DNA of 32,531 nt. Source: Candidatus Hydrogenedentota bacterium. GTDB lineage: Bacteria > Hydrogenedentota > Hydrogenedentia > Hydrogenedentales > JAGMZX01. Below the pieces are notes generated by a model. That model was not told the origin of the DNA. It was given only the letters and a program-made list of their open reading frames with translations, and made no database searches. The position numbers and the translations under genes were made by a program. The DNA is taken from positions 1 through 32,531 of the forward strand of contig JAKQEQ010000125.1 of assembly GCA_029556545.1 (NCBI GenBank), read 5' to 3'. Shown here in pieces: positions 5,154-32,531 of the stretch. The stretch's first letter is position 1. Each line of letters opens with the position of its first letter.

Positions 5154-6212
5154 ATGTCTGAGAAGCGGGAAGTGATCTTGTCGGGGATTCGCCCGACGGG
5201 TCGGCTGCATTATGGGAACTATTTCGGGGCTATCCAGCATTTCATCCGGCTCCAGGACGAGGGCCAGTGCTGTTATTACTTTATTGCGGATTATCATGCG
5301 CTGACGACGATTACGGAGCGGGAGGACTTTTACGGTCAGACGATCGAGATGCTGCGGACGTATGTGGCGTGCGGGCTCGACCCGGAGAAGTCGGTCATCT
5401 ATCGTCAGAGCGATCTGCCGTGCACGGCGGAGTTGATGCTGCTTCTGGGCATGATCACGAACATCGGCTTTCTGGAACGGGGGACGACGTACAAGGATAA
5501 GCTGACGAAGCTGCAGGAGGATCCGAAGTCGGAGGGCAATCCGCTTTCGTATGGGCTGCTTGGGTATCCGGTGCTGATGGCGGCGGATATTCTGATAGTG
5601 CGAGCGGACAAGGTGCCGGTGGGCGACGATCAGCGGCAGCACGTGGAGATGGCGTGCGATATCGCGCAGCGGTTCAACAGCCGCTTCGGCGACACGCTGC
5701 ACGTGCCGCATCCGGTGGGTCGCGACGCCTTGCGGCTGCCTGGGCTCGATGGGGCGTCGAAGATGGGGAAGAGCGAGCACAATACGCTGGATTTGCTCGA
5801 TGAACCGGAGACGGTGCTGAAGAAGATTCGCGGGGTGGAGACTTCGACGGATCCGCTGCCGCTGGAGGTGGAGAGCAACGACCCGGACATCATCGTGCCG
5901 CGCATGCCGGGCGGGGTGGGGGTGTTGTACCGGCTGCTGCATTTGCTCGCACCGGAGGAGGTGTATCTTGATTTTGTGGGCAAGTACCGGCGCAAGGAGA
6001 AGTTCTACGGCACGTTGAAGCAGACGCTGGCGGAGTACGTGTCCGCGTTTAACGCGCCGATCATCGAGCGGTACAACGCGCCGGGGAACGACGAGGCGTC
6101 GGTGTGCGACTTCCTTCGGGCGAACGCGAAGCAGGTGACGCCGGTGGCGCTTAATATGGTGGAGCGCTGTCGCGCCGCCATCGGGATCGGGCACAGCCTG
6201 TACCGGGCGTAG
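5154..6212 (+). CDS. trpS: Tryptophanyl-tRNA synthetase
   Basis: Charges tRNA-Trp with tryptophan in the cytosol. The 352-residue class I synthetase has the HIGH-equivalent motif PTGRLHYGN (residues 14-22), in which the usual HxGN reads H-Y-G-N. The KMSKS-equivalent motif KMGKS is at residues 203-207. The tryptophan-pocket segments DYHALT and GDDQRQH are also present. The ATG at 5154 is preferred over an in-frame TTG at 5127 because AAGGAAAGG lies just upstream of it. Its length is typical of bacterial TrpRS. The following transporter genes start 24 bp after the stop and may be cotranscribed. Confidence 0.97.
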   Translation: MSEKREVILSGIRPTGRLHYGNYFGAIQHFIRLQDEGQCCYYFIADYHALTTITEREDFYGQTIEMLRTYVACGLDPEKSVIYRQSDLPCTAELMLLLGMITNIGFLERGTTYKDKLTKLQEDPKSEGNPLSYGLLGYPVLMAADILIVRADKVPVGDDQRQHVEMACDIAQRFNSRFGDTLHVPHPVGRDALRLPGLDGASKMGKSEHNTLDLLDEPETVLKKIRGVETSTDPLPLEVESNDPDIIVPRMPGGVGVLYRLLHLLAPEEVYLDFVGKYRRKEKFYGTLKQTLAEYVSAFNAPIIERYNAPGNDEASVCDFLRANAKQVTPVALNMVERCRAAIGIGHSLYRA

Positions 6213-24521: not shown

Positions 24522-24534
24522 CTCGGAGGCCGCC

Positions 24535-26019
24535 ATGAACTACAACCTCTTGAAGGAAGACTGGATTCCAGTCCTCTACGCGAACGGAGAATGGAAGCGG
24601 GTCGGGATTCTCAAGGCATTCGAGCATGCGCACCGAATCCGACAAATCGCCGCGACTAATCCGATGGACCGAGTAGCCATCCTTCGTTTCCTGCTTGCTA
24701 TCCTGTACTGGTGCAAGGGAAGTCCACCTGAAACTACGAACGCGGACTTGCCCAAGTCGTTTCCAGCAGAGTGGTTTGCCAAACTCGAAGAGAATCGAGA
24801 ATGCTTCAATCTCCTGGGCGAGGGAAGACGGTTCTTTCAGATTAGGAAATGTGGCGAGGCAGTACAAACGAAGCTTCCGTCAAACTACCTCATTCACGAG
24901 ATTCCCACTGGCCGGAATGCGTGGCATTTTCGACACTCAAGGGATGGAGCAAACGGATTGTGCCTTGCTTGCTGTGCGGTCGGGCTCTTGCGGCTGCCGT
25001 TGTTTGCGACATCTGGTGGCCGCGGCAAGCCACCGGGCATCAACGCTAAACCACCACTCTATGCAGTTCCCGTGGGGCCTTCGCTGGCCACGACATTGTG
25101 GCTTTCATGGTGTGAGCAACCAAACTTGGGGACACCTGCGTGGGAGTCCGTAAACGTAGAGCTTCCACCAACGGGCGCCGTCCCGACACTGGTCGGGCTG
25201 ACATGGCTGCCGCGACGAGTATGGTTGGATGATCCCGAAAATTGTTCTGACCAATGCATTTCCTGTGGTCGGGAGGAAACGCTTGTTCGAAGATGTGTAT
25301 TTGCTGGAGTCGGCAGCACGAAGACAGGCGACGGTGAATCGAGTCGGCTGTGGAGCGATCCGCACGTTATTTACGTTCGCGATTCCAAAGGTAACGTCAC
25401 ATCGATGCATGCGAGTGATGCCTTGGGCGCTCCTGATGCCGCAGCGGGGCAATGGGCAAGAATTGCCGCAAGTATGGTTGCACAGCGGGAGAACGGGGAT
25501 ATCACAAGCCTTGGGTGGGCAGACGCAATCGAAGGAACTCGGGCGCACGTATGGCTGGTGGGTTTCTCAACTGTGCAAAACGACAAATACTTGGAGGCAA
25601 TGGAAGCCGTTGTTGATCTGCCTTTCGACGTTCAGGAGTTGTCAGAGGTCATCGCGCGATTCACGCGGTGGCAAGCGCAAGGACGCAGTCTAGAGGCGCG
25701 TATCCAAGCCATCGAGCGGCCCGAGAAAAGAGGCAAGTCCGAGAAGAGAGCAGTGAGCGTCGTTGCGGCGATACGTCCACATGTCGAGGGGCTTGTATCG
25801 GGCCTCACGGACCAACTTGTTGTCGGTGGCGACGAGAAGTGGCAGGAAGCAGCCGAAACGTACCGGCCAATGATGAGCGCTGTATCCAAGTCATTGTCGC
25901 CGGGGTTTACTGTGCAAGCCGTGCAACGGCGACGGCAAATGGGCGCGCTGATGCCGGATGTGTGGCGTGCAACGAAAGTCACGAAAGAAGAGAGACGAAA
26001 GAAGGGAGGTGCGCGATGA
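24535..26019 (+). CDS. cas8e: Type I-E Cascade large subunit Cas8e (Cse1/CasA)
   Basis: The large Cascade subunit recognises the PAM and helps unwind target DNA; in standard I-E systems it also recruits Cas3. The 494-residue length matches E. coli CasA (502). The typical start NYNLLKEDWIPVLYANGE is followed by VGILKAFEHAHRI. Cys pairs (CLACC near residue 145 and CSDQCISC near 240) could bind zinc. The protein ends in a helical bundle with VSVVAAIRPHVEGLVSGL and PGFTVQAVQRRRQMGALMP. The ATG at 24535 has GGAGG six bases upstream; a longer in-frame start at 24439 lacks such a site. The stop overlaps cse2 as ATGA. With no cas3 here, the Cas3-docking role may be lost (inference). Base composition is visibly less GC-rich than the preceding genes. 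Confidence 0.9.
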   Translation: MNYNLLKEDWIPVLYANGEWKRVGILKAFEHAHRIRQIAATNPMDRVAILRFLLAILYWCKGSPPETTNADLPKSFPAEWFAKLEENRECFNLLGEGRRFFQIRKCGEAVQTKLPSNYLIHEIPTGRNAWHFRHSRDGANGLCLACCAVGLLRLPLFATSGGRGKPPGINAKPPLYAVPVGPSLATTLWLSWCEQPNLGTPAWESVNVELPPTGAVPTLVGLTWLPRRVWLDDPENCSDQCISCGREETLVRRCVFAGVGSTKTGDGESSRLWSDPHVIYVRDSKGNVTSMHASDALGAPDAAAGQWARIAASMVAQRENGDITSLGWADAIEGTRAHVWLVGFSTVQNDKYLEAMEAVVDLPFDVQELSEVIARFTRWQAQGRSLEARIQAIERPEKRGKSEKRAVSVVAAIRPHVEGLVSGLTDQLVVGGDEKWQEAAETYRPMMSAVSKSLSPGFTVQAVQRRRQMGALMPDVWRATKVTKEERRKKGGAR

Positions 26020-26522
26020 GTCCTACGGAGCAATATATCGAGGCACTAAGCAACTTGAAGTCCGGGGATTTGGGCCTGCTCCGGACACATGCCGGACAAG
26101 GGCTAGATCAATCAGTAGAGGGATTTGACCTCTTCGCCGGGCTATGGTGGCCGTTGCGGGACAAGAATCACCGCGCGCCGCGCCGACAGGTGGCTTGGCT
26201 TATAGCGAAACTCTACGCATGCTGTCCAATCGAGCACGCTGACGGCCAAGTACTCGGGCGTCAACTTCGCCAGTGTTGGCTTCACGTTCCGGCAGATAAG
26301 CGCGAGCGATTCCGGGCGCTTGTTGACCAACTCCTTGTCTCAAGCCTTGCGGAGATTGAGCCTGCGATACGTTGGGCGTTGATGGAAATCAGCGACAGGG
26401 AACTTAAACTTGATTGGGTCAAGTTGACCGATGACCTTTCCATTTGGGAACGAGAGAGTACCCGCCTTCGGTGGGCGGAACAGTTTATTGCTAACAACGG
26501 AGGGTTGAAAGATGTTGATTGA
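26016..26522 (+). CDS. cse2: Type I-E Cascade small subunit Cse2 (Cas11e)
   Basis: The small alpha-helical subunit that forms a dimer along the Cascade belly and stabilises the crRNA-DNA hybrid. The 168-residue all-helical protein is rich in Arg, Leu and Trp. It shows Cse2-like segments: GDLGLLRTHAGQGLDQSVEGF, FAGLWWPLRD, RRQVAWLIAKLYACCPI, and FRALVDQLLVSSLAEIEPAIRWALMEI. Length and gene position (between cas8e and cas7e) agree with E. coli CasB (160). The start ATG at 26016 has GGGAGG upstream and overlaps the cas8e stop. Its 3' end overlaps the cas7e start by 11 bp, a compact operon arrangement. Confidence 0.85.
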   Translation: MSPTEQYIEALSNLKSGDLGLLRTHAGQGLDQSVEGFDLFAGLWWPLRDKNHRAPRRQVAWLIAKLYACCPIEHADGQVLGRQLRQCWLHVPADKRERFRALVDQLLVSSLAEIEPAIRWALMEISDRELKLDWVKLTDDLSIWERESTRLRWAEQFIANNGGLKDVD

Positions 26523-27672
26523 CATGCATGTGATTCAGAACCACAGTCCCGCGAATCTCAATCGGGACGACTTGGGCGCGCCGAAGACGTGCTACTTTGG
26601 CGGAGTACTTCGCTCTCGAATTTCCAGTCAGTGTATTAAACGAAGTATTCGCATGAGTGAGCAGTTTAGGGTGCTTTGTGGTGGAGTGAGAACGCGCCAA
26701 CTGGCAAAGTTGATCACTGATCGGATAGAAGGCGGGCCAGAGGTTCAGAAGCGCGCCGAGAAGATTCTGGAGATTTGCGGTCTCAAGCCGAAGAAATCGA
26801 AGAAGGAGGAATCTGAGCAGAGTGGTTCAGAACGGAGCAAGATGCTGGTCTATACAAGTCGCGACGCGATTGAAGAAATGGCCCGGCTACTTCAAGCCAG
26901 CACTGGCAAGAGCGATGACAAGTTGGCCGAGGAATTCGGCAAACTAATTGCCACGCGGACCGCGGTTCCAGATATGGCGCTCAGTGGGCGGATGCTGGAG
27001 ACAGGCGTGCTTAAAGATACCACCGTTGAAGCCGCTTTGCAGGTAGCGCATGCCATTTCCACCCACGAGGCGCGGCCGGAAGTGGATTACTACGTTGCCG
27101 CCGACGATATCCCAGGGGACGACGCGGGAGCCGGCTATGTGGACGAGGCCATGTTTGCCTCGGCTTGCTTCTACAAGTACTTCTCTATCCACTGGGAGAT
27201 GCTGGTCGAGAATCTTCAAGGCTACTTGGAGTTGGCCGCACATACGGTCGGGGCATTCATTCGGGGTGCTGCGCTGACCAACCCGACGGGAAAGCAGAAC
27301 AGTTTTGCCGCGCACAATCCACCGGATGGCATGCTTATCGAGTTCAAGGACACGCCAATCAGTTACGCGAATGCGTTTGCGAAACCGGTGTCTCTCGACG
27401 GGGGGCGGGACATGATCTCGCAGAGCATTGCGCAATTGAGCCAGTATGCCTACGACCTGGAAGCGGGTTATGGTCCGCCTCGGGAACGTTTCTGGTTCTC
27501 GCCTAATGAGAGGTATTCCCTGAATGTTGAGAAGGACACGGAGCGTTCCCTTACTCCAAACAGCTACAAGTCTTTGGATGCCTTGATCGAGGCGGTGATT
27601 AAGGGTATTGACCCGAAGTTGGACTGGCAACAAGTGCAGCAAGCCGTAGTCTGTTCCGAGGTGGCCCCATGA
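26512..27672 (+). CDS. cas7e: Type I-E Cascade backbone subunit Cas7e (Cse4/CasC)
   Basis: The backbone subunit, present in about six copies along the crRNA spacer. The 386-residue protein starts with the strongly conserved LIDMHVIQNHSPANLNRDD and GAPKTCYFGGVLRSRISSQC, the RRM-fold entry of Cas7e. Also visible are the thumb-like segment TAVPDMALSGRMLE, DYYVAADDIPGDDAGAGYVDEAMFAS, and the conserved GAFIRGAALTNPTGKQNSFAAHNPPDGMLIEF. The length is slightly above E. coli CasC (363), with a charged insertion KPKKSKKEESEQSGSERSK at about residues 92-110. The start has GGAGGGTTGAAAG upstream. The stop overlaps the cas5 start as ATGA. Confidence 0.95.
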   Translation: MLIDMHVIQNHSPANLNRDDLGAPKTCYFGGVLRSRISSQCIKRSIRMSEQFRVLCGGVRTRQLAKLITDRIEGGPEVQKRAEKILEICGLKPKKSKKEESEQSGSERSKMLVYTSRDAIEEMARLLQASTGKSDDKLAEEFGKLIATRTAVPDMALSGRMLETGVLKDTTVEAALQVAHAISTHEARPEVDYYVAADDIPGDDAGAGYVDEAMFASACFYKYFSIHWEMLVENLQGYLELAAHTVGAFIRGAALTNPTGKQNSFAAHNPPDGMLIEFKDTPISYANAFAKPVSLDGGRDMISQSIAQLSQYAYDLEAGYGPPRERFWFSPNERYSLNVEKDTERSLTPNSYKSLDALIEAVIKGIDPKLDWQQVQQAVVCSEVAP

Positions 27673-28766
27673 GTGGAAACACGCTCTTTCTACGGCTCGA
27701 AGGCCCTATGCAGGCATGGGGCAATCAGGAGTCGAAGTTTGTTATTCGCCGCACGACGGACGCACCAACGAAGTCCGGGGTGCTCGGCCTATTATGCGCC
27801 GCGATGGGTGTGCCTAGAGTCGAAGCGTCACGCGAGCGGCTGCCGCGACTGGTGGCACTGCAAATGGCCGTGCGTTGCGACAGGCCGGGCATACACTGGT
27901 GGGATTACCACACCGTCGGCGCCGGAATGCGCATGAGAACGGCGGAGGGCGGGATGAAGGCGGACACCATGCTGACCAGGCGCGAATACTTGTGTGACGC
28001 CAGTTTCCTTGTTGTCCTTCAGGGCGATCCGCCGGTGATCGAGGAGTTGGCCGGCGCCTTGCGGAATCCGGTATGGCCGCTGTACTTGGGGAGAAAATGC
28101 TGCCCCGTCTCGCGACCAGTGGCAGAGGCGGAGTCAGTGACGTGCTCCGATCTCTTGTCGGCCCTAGCGTTCCTTCCGTGGCGGCCGCGATATGAAGGTG
28201 ACGAAGTCCCTGAATCCGTGGATTGTCTGTTCGATTGGGTGCCGACTGCCCAGGAAAGCGAAGCACCGCCGGAGACGGAAGTCTGGTATGACGTACCGAT
28301 TTCGTTTGAACCGCCAAGCCATCGACCAAGGTTTGTTTCTCGAAGGCAATTGCAGTTGGGCAGGGACGGTCAAGTGGAGACCGGAGAGCCAACCCAACGC
28401 AGGACTCCGCGCCCGCCGCGGCCACGCGCCAATTACGGGAATACACAGTACCGGCGGGTTCGCCAAGAGCGATTAGATCGTGACAAGCATCTCTGTGTCT
28501 TCTGCAAGTCTTCCGCGACGACTGTACAGCATGTCACTTATCGGCACGCTGGCGGCGACGAACAAATTGAGGAACTTCGTTCACTCTGTCGCCTGTGCCA
28601 TGACGCCGTGACAATGATCGAATATGGCCTCGGGATGGGACTGGACAGAATCAATCCCGAGGAACAGCGATGGCGAGACACGATTATTCGTAAGCGGGAC
28701 GAGATCATACGCTTTCGGTCCCTGGAGACGCGGCGAAGGAGACTGGCGGCAGAGGAGGTCGAATAA
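27669..28766 (+). CDS. cas5e: Cas5e fused to a C-terminal HNH nuclease domain
   Basis: Residues 1 to about 228 are a complete Cas5e, which caps the crRNA 5' handle: LFLRLEGPMQAWG, then TTDAPTKSGVLGLLCAAMG, YHTVGAG, YLCDASFLVVLQGD, and the end WYDVPISFEPPSHRPRFVSRR. That is about the whole length of E. coli CasD (224). A Pro/Arg-rich linker (about 229-257) leads to an HNH domain at about 258-320. The zinc Cys pairs are C276/C279 and C307/C310. The beta-beta-alpha metal core is VQHVTY with H288, then EELRSLC, then CRLCHDAVT with H311. Position 287 is Gln where many HNH proteins have His or Asp. A charged helical tail follows (330-365). The frame is continuous with no stop between the domains. 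It probably provides the DNA-cutting activity in place of Cas3. Confidence 0.92.
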   Translation: MSGNTLFLRLEGPMQAWGNQESKFVIRRTTDAPTKSGVLGLLCAAMGVPRVEASRERLPRLVALQMAVRCDRPGIHWWDYHTVGAGMRMRTAEGGMKADTMLTRREYLCDASFLVVLQGDPPVIEELAGALRNPVWPLYLGRKCCPVSRPVAEAESVTCSDLLSALAFLPWRPRYEGDEVPESVDCLFDWVPTAQESEAPPETEVWYDVPISFEPPSHRPRFVSRRQLQLGRDGQVETGEPTQRRTPRPPRPRANYGNTQYRRVRQERLDRDKHLCVFCKSSATTVQHVTYRHAGGDEQIEELRSLCRLCHDAVTMIEYGLGMGLDRINPEEQRWRDTIIRKRDEIIRFRSLETRRRRLAAEEVE

Positions 28767-29518
28767 TGTACCTGTCGCACCTCTTGATCAATGTTGGCGA
28801 CAATCCGGACCGGCCGCGGCCGGGGCGGCTGTGGCTGCGAAATGTTTACCATGTGCACCAGCGGCTTTGGATGGCGTTTCCCACCGAGGCGCAACGCACG
28901 GCCGATCCGGAGTTCCTTGCCCCCTTCAATCCGAAGGGCTTCGCGGCCCCGCGCTTCCTCTTTCGTGTGGACAATAGCGTCGAGCGCAATTGTCCCCGCG
29001 CAGTAATCGTGGTCCTGTCGGGGTCGGAACCGAATTGGCGCTATGCCTTTCAGAATGCGCGCACGTTCCTTGCCGCCGAAGCGGAAACGCGCGAATATAG
29101 TCCAACGTTTGCGACGGGGCAGGAGTTCTGCTTCCGCATTCGCGTCAACTTGAGCAAGAAAAGCGTGAAGTATCGCAAGACAGGGGAGAAGACGGACACA
29201 GAAGGACGCCCGCGAACACAGGGCAAGCGTATTGCGCTGACGTGGGAGAAGGACCAGCGGCCTGACGAGGTCATCGTTCCCTGGTTTGCGAGAAAGGGGC
29301 CACGGAACGGCTTCGAACTGCGGAAATGCGAAGTGATTCAAATCGGTTGGGTAAACGCGTTTCGGCCCGGCAAAGGCGAGCGGATGAAGTTCCGGTCCGC
29401 GCTTCTCGAAGGCATTTTCGCGGTAAAGGACGAGAAAGCGCTTGCCGATGCTATTGCCGCCGGCATCGGTTCGGCGAAGGCGTTTGGTTTTGGTTTGCTT
29501 TCGGTTGCGCCGCGCTGA
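28766..29518 (+). CDS. cas6e: CRISPR repeat endoribonuclease Cas6e (Cse3/CasE)
   Basis: Cuts the pre-crRNA at the 3' base of each repeat hairpin and stays bound to the crRNA 3' end. The 250-residue protein has two ferredoxin-like halves. It starts MYLSHLLINV. The segment YHVHQRLWMAFP aligns by pattern with E. coli CasE YQLHQGLW; H31 corresponds to the catalytic histidine. The family Gly-rich end GIGSAKAFGFGLLSV is present. It is somewhat longer than CasE (199), mostly through a charged segment at about residues 125-165. The start shares a base with the cas5 stop (TAATG). It is followed by a 128-bp gap before cas1 containing a palindromic repeat. Confidence 0.93.
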   Translation: MYLSHLLINVGDNPDRPRPGRLWLRNVYHVHQRLWMAFPTEAQRTADPEFLAPFNPKGFAAPRFLFRVDNSVERNCPRAVIVVLSGSEPNWRYAFQNARTFLAAEAETREYSPTFATGQEFCFRIRVNLSKKSVKYRKTGEKTDTEGRPRTQGKRIALTWEKDQRPDEVIVPWFARKGPRNGFELRKCEVIQIGWVNAFRPGKGERMKFRSALLEGIFAVKDEKALADAIAAGIGSAKAFGFGLLSVAPR

Positions 29519-29600: not shown

Positions 29601-29619
29601 CACGGGCGGGACGCCCGTG
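29601..29619. repeat. Palindromic element between cas6e and cas1
   Basis: CACGGGC and GCCCGTG arms surround GGGAC. This has the same 7-bp stem and 5-nt loop as 4155-4173 and the repeats at 11817-11903. It splits the cas genes into cas8e-cas6e and cas1-cas2 groups. A TTGACA at 29546 lacks a -10 and is not called a promoter. Confidence 0.8.
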
Positions 29620-29646
29620 CCACGAACTTGGGAAAAGGGGGAAGCC

Positions 29647-30612
29647 ATGAGAACAAAGGACTATCACGAAATCCCGAAGGTGCGCGATAAGTGGAGTTAC
29701 CTGTACGTCGAGCACTGCCGGGTGGATCAGGAAGAAAAAGCGATTGCGGTGCATGATCAGTACGGGGTGACGCCGGTACCGTGCGCGAATTTGACGTTGT
29801 TGATGCTGGGTCCCGGCACGAAGATCACGCATGCGGCCATTACAACGCTGGCGGACACGGGCTGTATGGTTGTCTGGTGCGGGGAACAGGGGGTGCGCTT
29901 CTATGCGGCGGGTACGGGCACGACGCGCAACGCGGATAAGCTGCTGCATCAGGCGAGTCTGTGCACGCACCGTCAGAGTCGCTTGCACGTGGTGCGGCGC
30001 ATGTACGAGATGCGCTTCGAGCAGGATGTCGATCCGAACCTGACGCTGCAACAGATTCGCGGGATGGAAGGTGTGCGGGTGCGGGAGGCGTATGCCCGCG
30101 CTTCGCTCGAAAGCGGCGTGCCCTGGCGCGGGCGGTCGTATGACCGCGGCCAATGGGCGAAGGCGGACCCGGTGAATCGGGCGCTATCCGCGGCAAACTC
30201 GTGCCTGTACGGTGTCTCCCATGCGGCGATTGTGGCGGCGGGGTATTCCACGGCGCTCGGGTTCATCCACACGGGAAAGCAATTGTCGTTTGTCTACGAC
30301 ATCGCGGACCTCTACAAGGTGGACGTCACCGTGCCCGCGGCTTTTCAGGCCGCCGCGTCGGTCGAGAAGAACGTCGAGCGCGAGGTGCGCCTGCGGTGTC
30401 GTGATACGTTCGCGCAGAAGAATCTTCTGCCGCGTATCGTGGATGATATCGATTACGTGCTGGCGTTTGCGCCGCCGGAAGAAGAACCCACGGGGGATTT
30501 CGACAGCGACCCGGCCAGACCCGGGGACCTGTGGGACCCGGAAAGGGGCGTGACGCCGGGCGGGGTGCAGTATGGCGGTGAGCCGCCCACGCAGGAGGAA
30601 CTGCCGTTATGA
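29647..30612 (+). CDS. cas1: CRISPR integrase Cas1 (type I-E)
   Basis: Integrates new spacers as a complex with Cas2. The 321-residue protein has the expected catalytic residues at E141 (in MEGVRVRE), H208 (in GFIHTGKQLSFVYDIADLYK), D218 and D221, the same numbers as in E. coli Cas1 (305 residues). The I-E pattern SAANSCLYGVSHAAIVAAGYSTALGF precedes the active site. The C-terminus is an acidic, Pro/Gly-rich extension of about 40 residues (EEEPTGDFDSDP onward). The ATG at 29647 has AAAAGGGGG upstream; earlier in-frame codons from 29617 cross the palindromic repeat. The stop overlaps cas2 as ATGA. Confidence 0.96.
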   Translation: MRTKDYHEIPKVRDKWSYLYVEHCRVDQEEKAIAVHDQYGVTPVPCANLTLLMLGPGTKITHAAITTLADTGCMVVWCGEQGVRFYAAGTGTTRNADKLLHQASLCTHRQSRLHVVRRMYEMRFEQDVDPNLTLQQIRGMEGVRVREAYARASLESGVPWRGRSYDRGQWAKADPVNRALSAANSCLYGVSHAAIVAAGYSTALGFIHTGKQLSFVYDIADLYKVDVTVPAAFQAAASVEKNVEREVRLRCRDTFAQKNLLPRIVDDIDYVLAFAPPEEEPTGDFDSDPARPGDLWDPERGVTPGGVQYGGEPPTQEELPL

Positions 30613-30890
30613 TGGTGATGATCCTCGAACGCGTGCCTGCTTCGTTGCGGGGCGAACTCAGCCGATGGATGATCGAGCCGCATACCGGCGTCTTCGTCGG
30701 TACGGTGTCCGCCATGGTCCGCGAAAGACTGTGGCAGAAGGCGTGTGGGAGCGTGAAAGACGGCGCCTGCATGCTGATTTGGAGTTCCAATACGGAACAG
30801 GGCTTCAAGATCGACTTCTGGGGCGGCACGAAGCGCCATGTGACTGACTGGGAGGGACTTCAACTGGTAACAAAGCCACGAGAGCCTTAA
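30609..30890 (+). CDS. cas2: CRISPR adaptation protein Cas2 (type I-E)
   Basis: Cas2 bridges two Cas1 dimers in the spacer-integration complex. The 93-residue protein matches the type I-E form of Cas2 (E. coli 94 residues). It starts MVMILERVPASLRGELSRWM, then PHTGVFVGTVSAMVRERLW and GSVKDGACMLIWSSNTEQGF, ending with a short basic tail. The ATG overlaps the cas1 stop by 4 bp. Its TAA stop is only 10 bp before the first CRISPR repeat, so the usual leader and any host-factor site are missing or lie within the cas2 coding sequence. Confidence 0.93.
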   Translation: MMVMILERVPASLRGELSRWMIEPHTGVFVGTVSAMVRERLWQKACGSVKDGACMLIWSSNTEQGFKIDFWGGTKRHVTDWEGLQLVTKPREP

Positions 30891-30900
30891 AATGCAATGT

Positions 30901-32531
30901 GTGTTCCCCACGCACGTGGGGATGAACCGAATGATTGACACCATCGCCTTCGAAGTCCCAAGTGTTCCCCACGCACGTGGGGATGAACCGAATAGGACGC
31001 GCCTTGCGGACGAGGCATGGGAGTGTTCCCCACGCACGTGGGGATGAACCGTACCTTTTCCCTATACTACCTGTACTACACGCGTGTTCCCCACGCACGT
31101 GGGGATGAACCGCTCCGCGACCGTCGCCTGGCGTATGAACTCGGGTGTTCCCCACGCACGTGGGGATGAACCGGCGGACGCCAAGCCTCTTCTCTCGCGT
31201 TGCACGTGTTCCCCACGCACGTGGGGATGAACCGCGGGGGACAAAGCCACCGAGGGCGCGCGCAAAGTGTTCCCCACGCACGTGGGGATGAACCGAATCG
31301 CGGTTCTCGTGGACGCCACAAAATCCAGTGTTCCCCACGCACGTGGGGATGAACCGGACATGGACCCGCGAGTAGCAAAGTTAGCCGCGTGTTCCCCACG
31401 CACGTGGGGATGAACCGGAGAGCAATGACGTGGCAAGAGCGCATAGAACGTGTTCCCCACGCACGTGGGGATGAACCTTCAGACGCGCCCGCATCCGCCT
31501 CGGGCTGAACGTGTTCCCCACGCACGTGGGGATGAACCGCGAGTTGCAGGAACGTTCCATTACATTCGCTCGTGTTCCCCACGCACGTGGGGATGAACCG
31601 ACGCCGGACACAACCAAACTGATACGGCCTGTGTGTTCCCCACGCACGTGGGGATGAACCGTAGCACGCCCGACTTCCCTACGCACCTATAACGTGTTCC
31701 CCACGCACGTGGGGATGAACCGGGCGAAGGACACCGGCGAGACATGGGTCGCGCGTGTTCCCCACGCACGTGGGGATGAACCGACGAGTGCGGGGTCGCC
31801 CTCCAGGGCCGGGGGGTGTTCCCCACGCACGTGGGGATGAACCGGAAGAGGAACAAGAAGAAGAGCAGCAAGAAGAGTGTTCCCCACGCACGTGGGGATG
31901 AACCGAGCTAGAGATAGGCGTTGTGGATGATGAAATTGTGTTCCCCACGCACGTGGGGATGAACCGGTCTGAGCCGGATGCAGCAGTACGGGACGGTGGT
32001 GTTCCCCACGCACGTGGGGATGAACCGAGAAACGCGGGCTCGCGCTCGCGGGCAGCACCGTGTTCCCCACGCACGTGGGGATGAACCGCATTGGGCCGGT
32101 CGTCTGGGCGGGTTCCGGGCGTGTTCCCCACGCACGTGGGGATGAACCGCCATGACCTACCACATCATCGTAATCGCCGCGGTGTTCCCCACGCACGTGG
32201 GGATGAACCGAGGAGACCCAGGACCGCGCCAAGGGACCCGCCGTGTTCCCCACGCACGTGGGGATGAACCGGCGGGAAAAGGCCCGGAAACACGGCGGGA
32301 TCCGTGTTCCCCACGCACGTGGGGATGAACCGTCCGAGTCCGTAAGGCTAAGTGCAGCAAAGACGTGTTCCCCACGCACGTGGGGATGAACCGAGGGATG
32401 AGCGCGGTGAGGGGGACGGAGCGGAGTGTTCCCCACGCACGTGGGGATGAACCGTACTTCCGCACCTGCGCCGCGCCGTACATCAGGTGTTCCCCACGCA
32501 CGTGGGGATGAACCGACTTACGAATCGTTGT
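30901..32531 (+). CRISPR. Type I-E CRISPR array, 27 repeats, continuing past the window
   Basis: A 29-bp repeat begins GTGTTCCCC and ends GGGGATGAACCG. It recurs with a strict 61-bp period (29 + 32-bp spacers) from 30901 to 32487, giving 27 repeats, 26 full spacers and a partial one. The inner part, CCCCAC-GCAC-GTGGGG, forms the hairpin cut by Cas6e. The 3' part ATGAACCG would be the crRNA 5' handle when transcribed in the plus direction, the same sense as the cas genes. Repeats look identical except the tenth (31450-31478), which ends in T instead of G. No spacer is duplicated, by eye. The sixteenth spacer is a purine-only-like run of GAAGAG/CAAGAA units. Confidence 0.98.

What the first reader, a model, noticed from the sequence alone, without database searches (positions are those of the whole stretch)
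27669..28766. HNH nuclease domain fused to Cas5e: a candidate single-complex DNA cutter
The sequence shows one uninterrupted frame in which a full-length Cas5e (about residues 1-228) is followed by a Pro/Arg linker and an HNH domain with C276, C279, H288, C307, C310 and H311. In a standard type I-E system, Cas5e ends at about 224 residues and Cas3 does the cutting. A nuclease on Cas5 would sit at the crRNA 5' handle end, next to the PAM and Cas8e, and could make a defined cut instead of Cas3's long degradation. I recall, without being able to check, a 2023 clustering survey reporting Cas5-HNH and Cas8-HNH Cas3-less type I systems. This locus would be a further natural example.
Basis: partly seen in the sequence, partly recalled or inferred. 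Interest (0 to 1): 0.95.

Follow-up and report, generated by a model that had tools for sequence, protein, structure and literature searches.

The report
Cas3-less CRISPR with nuclease-fused Cas5
This is an ordinary-looking member of a recently described bacterial immune system (CRISPR subtype I-E2) in which the usual DNA-shredding Cas3 protein is missing and a small cutting domain fused to the Cas5 protein most likely makes a single precise cut; it adds a new host lineage to a kind that is already known and structurally solved.

Summary
27669-28766 is one open frame (365 aa): Cas5e (Pfam Cas_Cas5 E=8e-43) followed by an HNH domain (Pfam HNH E=4e-5, above cut-off) with all six residues as stated. 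It is not a frame error: 47 homologues from many phyla have the same fusion. The reading as a Cas3-less type I-E system with a built-in nuclease is also right, but this kind is already known. The best Protein Data Bank match (E=1e-123) is the Cas5-HNH subunit of the Candidatus Cloacimonetes Cascade (8yb6 and others), characterised in 2023-24 and named I-E2 in 2025. The window carries the full I-E2 operon, no cas3 locally or above cut-off in a 96%-complete genome, and a 27-repeat array with 32-nt spacers. One mechanistic detail is contradicted by published work on the homologue: the HNH lies between Cas6 and Cas11 and cuts on the PAM-distal side, not next to the PAM. The window adds I-E2 in a probable Hydrogenedentota genome, and the survey adds 52 loci from about ten phyla, one with a cas3 remnant at the expected place. 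New member of a known kind; low-to-moderate interest.

The parts
24532..26019 (+). cas8e (cse1), large subunit, 495 aa
   Evidence: Pfam CRISPR_Cse1 E 1.1e-44; best solved match is the Cas8e of the same Cas5-HNH Cascade 8yb6_J, E 3e-64
26013..26522 (+). cas11e (cse2), small subunit, 169 aa
   Evidence: Pfam CRISPR_Cse2 E 2.7e-12
26512..27672 (+). cas7e, backbone subunit, 386 aa
   Evidence: Pfam Cas_CT1975 E 1.4e-92
27669..28766 (+). cas5e-HNH fusion, 365 aa
   Evidence: Pfam Cas_Cas5 and HNH; phmmer to 8yb6_A E 1.3e-123; Foldseek E 7e-50
28434..28763 (+). HNH region (residues 256-365): Zn knuckle C276/C279/C307/C310; catalytic H288, E302 (D in most relatives), H311
28766..29518 (+). cas6e, crRNA-processing endonuclease, 250 aa
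   Evidence: Pfam CRISPR_assoc E 5.7e-38; Cas6e in PADLOC
29617..30612 (+). cas1e, integrase, 331 aa; the only Cas1 found in the genome
   Evidence: PADLOC Cas1e E 3e-124; own-genome search
30609..30890 (+). cas2e, 93 aa
   Evidence: Pfam Cas_Cas2CT1978 E 6.4e-33
30901..32531 (+). CRISPR array, 27 repeats of 29 nt (GTGTTCCCCACGCACGTGGGGATGAACCG), 26 spacers all 32 nt; the contig ends 16 nt after the last repeat

Best explanation
The locus is a complete subtype I-E2 (Cas5-HNH) CRISPR-Cas system. Cas6e cuts the array transcript into crRNAs with a 32-nt guide. Cas8e, Cas11, Cas7e, Cas5e-HNH and Cas6e assemble on each crRNA. [quoted passage not shown] Cas1-Cas2 add new spacers. Shown here: gene content, fusion, conserved active-site and zinc residues, no Cas3 found. 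Inferred from the 55%-identical, experimentally studied homologue: assembly, cut position, cleavage of both strands by one HNH.
For: Full operon and array. Cas5-HNH matches the solved Cloacimonetes Cas5-HNH over nearly its whole length, E 1.3e-123; 55% identity to the Cloacimonetes UBA4175 protein overall, 56% in the HNH part. Its Cas8e also prefers that Cascade, E 3e-64 against 4e-10 for the best other Cas8e. Zinc cysteines, H288 and H311 are invariant in 48 sequences; position 302 is D (37), E (10), A (1). No Cas3 core over the cut-off in the genome; the cas3_HD near-miss (37.4 bits, cut-off 43.45) lies in an ORF that reads as an OB-fold plus HD protein of the YhaM exonuclease kind, not Cas3 (assignment from its sequence, no profile search run). 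In 52 genome loci no intact cas3 was found beside the operon, and L033 keeps a broken cas3 N-terminus directly upstream of cas8e. The homologue's activity, cut sites and structure are published (PMC10910872, PMC11822464).
Against: No experiment on this protein. The genome is a 195-contig assembly (96.0% complete, 4.3% contaminated), so a Cas3 on an unassembled stretch is not excluded. The third HNH position is E302 where most relatives have D. No protospacers were found, so use of the array was not shown.
Confidence: 0.93

Rival explanations
1. The HNH is intact in sequence but inactive or weakened (for example by E302), so that the complex only binds DNA and represses or blocks it.
For: Most relatives have D at 302; Cas8-HNH has N318 there. 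One relative (L011) has a partly lost zinc knuckle, so decay of the domain does occur in the kind.
Against: E occurs at 302 in 10 of 48 sequences spread over several phyla, with all other active-site residues invariant; D or E is a usual metal ligand (family knowledge).
Confidence: 0.04
2. A canonical I-E system in which the HNH is an accessory and a Cas3 elsewhere in the genome does the degrading.
For: 12 of 54 genomes or records searched (the window's genome, four relatives of its phylum with the fusion, and the records of the related loci) hold a Cas3 over the cut-off somewhere.
Against: The window's genome holds none over the cut-off; no intact cas3 was found beside the operon in any fetched locus; the homologue cuts without Cas3.
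Confidence: 0.02
3. The fusion is a sequencing or assembly artefact joining cas5 to a free HNH gene.
For: Draft assembly only.
Against: The same architecture with a linker of similar length in 47 other sequences and in solved structures.
Confidence: 0.005

Closest known systems
CRISPR subtype I-E2 (Cas5-HNH Cascade), Candidatus Cloacimonetes bacterium; PDB 8yb6, 8yha, 8zlu, 8zp7, 8zp9, 8zol, 9jxs
   Same: Effector gene set, Cas5-HNH architecture, active-site and zinc residues, absence of cas3, 32-nt spacers
   Different: 55% identity; E at 302 where the reference has D; repeat ends ATGAACCG where most relatives read GTGAACCG; different host lineage
Canonical type I-E Cascade plus Cas3 (E. coli, Thermobifida)
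   Same: Cas8e, Cas11, Cas7e, Cas5e, Cas6e, Cas1e, Cas2e families and 29/32 repeat-spacer pattern
   Different: No Cas3; Cas5e carries about 140 additional residues including an HNH nuclease
Subtype I-F4 (Cas8-HNH), Selenomonas sp.
   Same: Cas3-less type I with an HNH replacing Cas3, precise PAM-distal cuts
   Different: HNH inserted in Cas8 of an I-F complex; independent origin according to the published work
Type IV-A2 CasDinG-HNH
   Same: HNH domain recruited to a class 1 CRISPR effector
   Different: HNH sits on a helicase and the DNA is shredded processively

Membership tests
CRISPR subtype I-E2 (Cas5-HNH) | HNH nuclease fused to the C-terminus of Cas5e | tested here: met
CRISPR subtype I-E2 (Cas5-HNH) | Type I-E effector set Cas8e, Cas11, Cas7e, Cas6e in one operon | tested here: met
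CRISPR subtype I-E2 (Cas5-HNH) | cas3 typically absent | tested here: met
   None in the locus, none over the curated cut-off in the genome; genome 96% complete
CRISPR subtype I-E2 (Cas5-HNH) | Intact HNH active site and zinc knuckle | tested here: met
   C276, C279, H288, E302, C307, C310, H311. Two peptides around H288 and H311 were used as search patterns, so the invariance there is partly built in; C276/C279 were not in the patterns
CRISPR subtype I-E2 (Cas5-HNH) | Array with 32-nt spacers | tested here: met
   26 spacers of exactly 32 nt
CRISPR subtype I-E2 (Cas5-HNH) | PAM-dependent, RNA-guided cleavage of both strands on the PAM-distal side | not testable with these tools
   Needs biochemistry; known for the homologue
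Canonical type I-E with Cas3 | Cas3 helicase-nuclease | tested here: not met

The most novel reading that the evidence does not exclude
The subset of I-E2 nucleases with glutamate at the third HNH position (E302, as here) has a cleavage behaviour different from the studied D-type enzyme, for example in metal use, preference for one strand, or collateral single-strand cutting.
Probability: 0.1. Interest if true: 0.4.

Novelty: new member of a known kind. Interest (0 to 1): 0.22.

Why it matters
I-E2 is described in the literature as rare, and the one example whose experiments I could read about is from Cand. Cloacimonetes. This locus and the 52 others found here, in about ten phyla, give a natural panel of Cas3-less, probably precisely cutting Cascades for comparing PAMs, cut geometry, collateral activity and editing efficiency. 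The cas3 remnant in L033 is a further example of the published idea that the HNH replaced Cas3 at the same locus. The existence of the system itself is not a new discovery.

Tried and rejected
Frame or assembly error: rejected, 47 other sequences share the architecture. Hidden Cas3 in the genome: cas3_core matches are all 22-31 bits against a cut-off of 102, and the cas3_HD near-miss at G000:C71 reads as a YhaM-like OB-HD protein. Protospacer and PAM search: the whole array against phage records gave only four weak matches of 60-80% identity, not followed further; 22-nt starts of three spacers in IMG/VR gave none; the repeat itself gave none in IMG/VR. Plasmid-borne relatives: matches under 60% identity covering about 60% of the query, i.e. 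Cas5e without the HNH part in the rows listed. A tree placed the window inside the main I-E2 clade (98/96) but without a supported sister.

Full report
Observation. The window holds a complete operon on the + strand: cas8e (24532-26019), cas11 (26013-26522), cas7e (26512-27672), cas5e-HNH (27669-28766), cas6e (28766-29518), cas1 (29617-30612), cas2 (30609-30890), then an array of 27 repeats with 26 spacers of 32 nt running to the contig end. The fusion frame is open for 365 codons. Pfam finds Cas_Cas5 on residues 5-217 and HNH on 280-314 above its cut-off.

Identity. phmmer against solved structures returns the Cas5-HNH subunit of a type I-E Cascade (8yb6, 8yha, 8zlu, 8zm3, 8zol, 8zp7, 8zp9, 9jxs) at E 1.3e-123 to 3.3e-122; the next, canonical Cas5e, is at 1.4e-25. 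The last 94 residues alone match it at E 6.6e-29. Cas8e also matches this Cascade best. AlphaFold2 on the 48-sequence alignment gives mean pLDDT 90.9 but pTM 0.70, i.e. the placing of the two domains is less sure; Foldseek returns the seven Cas5-HNH entries first, the whole-chain superpositions having a large rmsd (about 10 A), as expected if the HNH arm is placed differently, while shorter chains of 205-227 residues fit at 1.8-2.5 A.

Literature. Altae-Tran et al. 2023 (PMC10910872) described Cas5-HNH systems that mostly lack cas3, showed PAM-dependent dsDNA cleavage, 3-4 bp and 8 bp beyond the PAM-distal end on target and non-target strand, collateral ssDNA cleavage, editing in human cells, and loss of editing when HNH catalytic residues were changed. 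A 2025 highlight (PMC11822464) of Zhang et al. 2024 puts the HNH between Cas6 and Cas11 with its cleft towards Cas11. Makarova et al. 2025 (PMC12669027) name it variant I-E2 and say that it typically lacks Cas3. The Zhang et al. paper itself was not read.

Cas3. In the window's own genome (6.1 Mb, 195 contigs, 96.0% complete) no cas3_core match exceeds 31 bits (cut-off 102); the best cas3_HD match is 37.4 bits (cut-off 43.45), in an ORF whose sequence looks like a YhaM-type OB-HD exonuclease (reading from the sequence, not from a profile search). There is one Cas1. tblastn of eight Cas3 proteins, taken from relatives' genomes, against the window and 57 loci finds only one significant trace: in L033 (Chloroflexi) 5854-6066, in the usual cas3 place directly upstream of cas8e, an N-terminal piece with stops around it. 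Several loci are short and do not reach upstream of cas8e, so for these nothing can be said. 12 of 54 genomes or records have a Cas3 over the cut-off somewhere, on places not shown to belong to this operon.

Relatives. One scan of 84,980 species genomes with two peptide patterns gave 52 loci, a lower bound because the patterns demand well-kept peptides. Hosts by record title include Planctomycetota, Armatimonadota, Chloroflexota, Cloacimonadota, Nitrospinota, Nitrospirota, Myxococcota and other Deltaproteobacteria, Desulfomonile, Hydrogenedentota, Kapabacteria and a gammaproteobacterium. In the window's own phylum 5 of 68 genomes have a match, including the window; two of these, G016 and G017, are the records L048 and L052, titled Candidatus Hydrogenedentota or Planctomycetota in the same order of matches, identified by identical sequence, so the window is probably from Hydrogenedentota (inference). 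Gene order cas8e-cas11-cas7e-cas5HNH-cas6e-cas1-cas2 is kept almost throughout. The window's protein is nearer to those of other phyla (67-69% to L012, L013, L064) than to the Hydrogenedentota ones (52-56%), the tree shows phyla mixed, and the cas genes are poorer in G+C than the rest of the window (58% against 65%). Together this suggests horizontal spread, which the tree alone does not prove.

Active site. C276, C279, H288, C307, C310 and H311 are invariant in the 48-row alignment. Position 302, which corresponds to N318 of Cas8-HNH by its spacing of nine from the last His, is D in 37, E in 10 (this window among them) and A in 1. Because the search patterns covered the H288 and C307-H311 peptides, invariance there is partly built in; G057, found by whole-segment search, still keeps these residues, while G006 keeps both His but loses part of the zinc knuckle.

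Mechanism and verdict. The best explanation is an I-E2 system that cuts target DNA precisely with the Cas5-borne HNH. What is shown is composition, homology and no detectable Cas3; assembly, cut position and double-strand cleavage are inferred from the homologue. It is a new member of a known kind.

Noticed in passing
window 30880-30930, and first repeats of about 30 I-E2 loci (e.g. L015, L022, L031, L053, L063): The first CRISPR repeat starts only about 10 nt after the cas2 stop codon, leaving no room for a usual leader; a similarly short gap (about 5-25 nt) is common among I-E2 loci, others having 30-98 nt, so any leader signal would have to lie inside the cas2 3' end.
   Followed up: partly
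L033 5854-6066: Broken N-terminal piece of cas3 directly upstream of cas8e in a Chloroflexi I-E2 locus, fitting loss of cas3 in a lineage with the HNH fusion.
   Followed up: yes
L011 (G006) 744-1844: A divergent Cas5-HNH with both catalytic His but a partly lost zinc knuckle (CVFTG...LSNLCH).
   Followed up: partly
L029 3372-8732: The N-terminal half of cas5-HNH is replaced by an RHS/YD-repeat-like frame, cas8e, cas11 and cas7e are not found, and transposase-like genes lie upstream: a disrupted I-E2 locus with a long array, or a misassembly.
   Followed up: partly
L057 and L062: Two different I-E2 loci on two contigs of one Cloacimonadota assembly.
   Followed up: no
L064: A Cas5-HNH operon 68% identical to the window's on a short IMG/VR contig (8.3 kb); probably a bacterial fragment, but not checked for phage genes.
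   Followed up: no
L047 (Kapabacteria): HNH domain with an enlarged insert between H288 and C307 (NYRQSSKEANLQALSDEKIMNKHIINHRTLC) and A at position 302 in the alignment.
   Followed up: no
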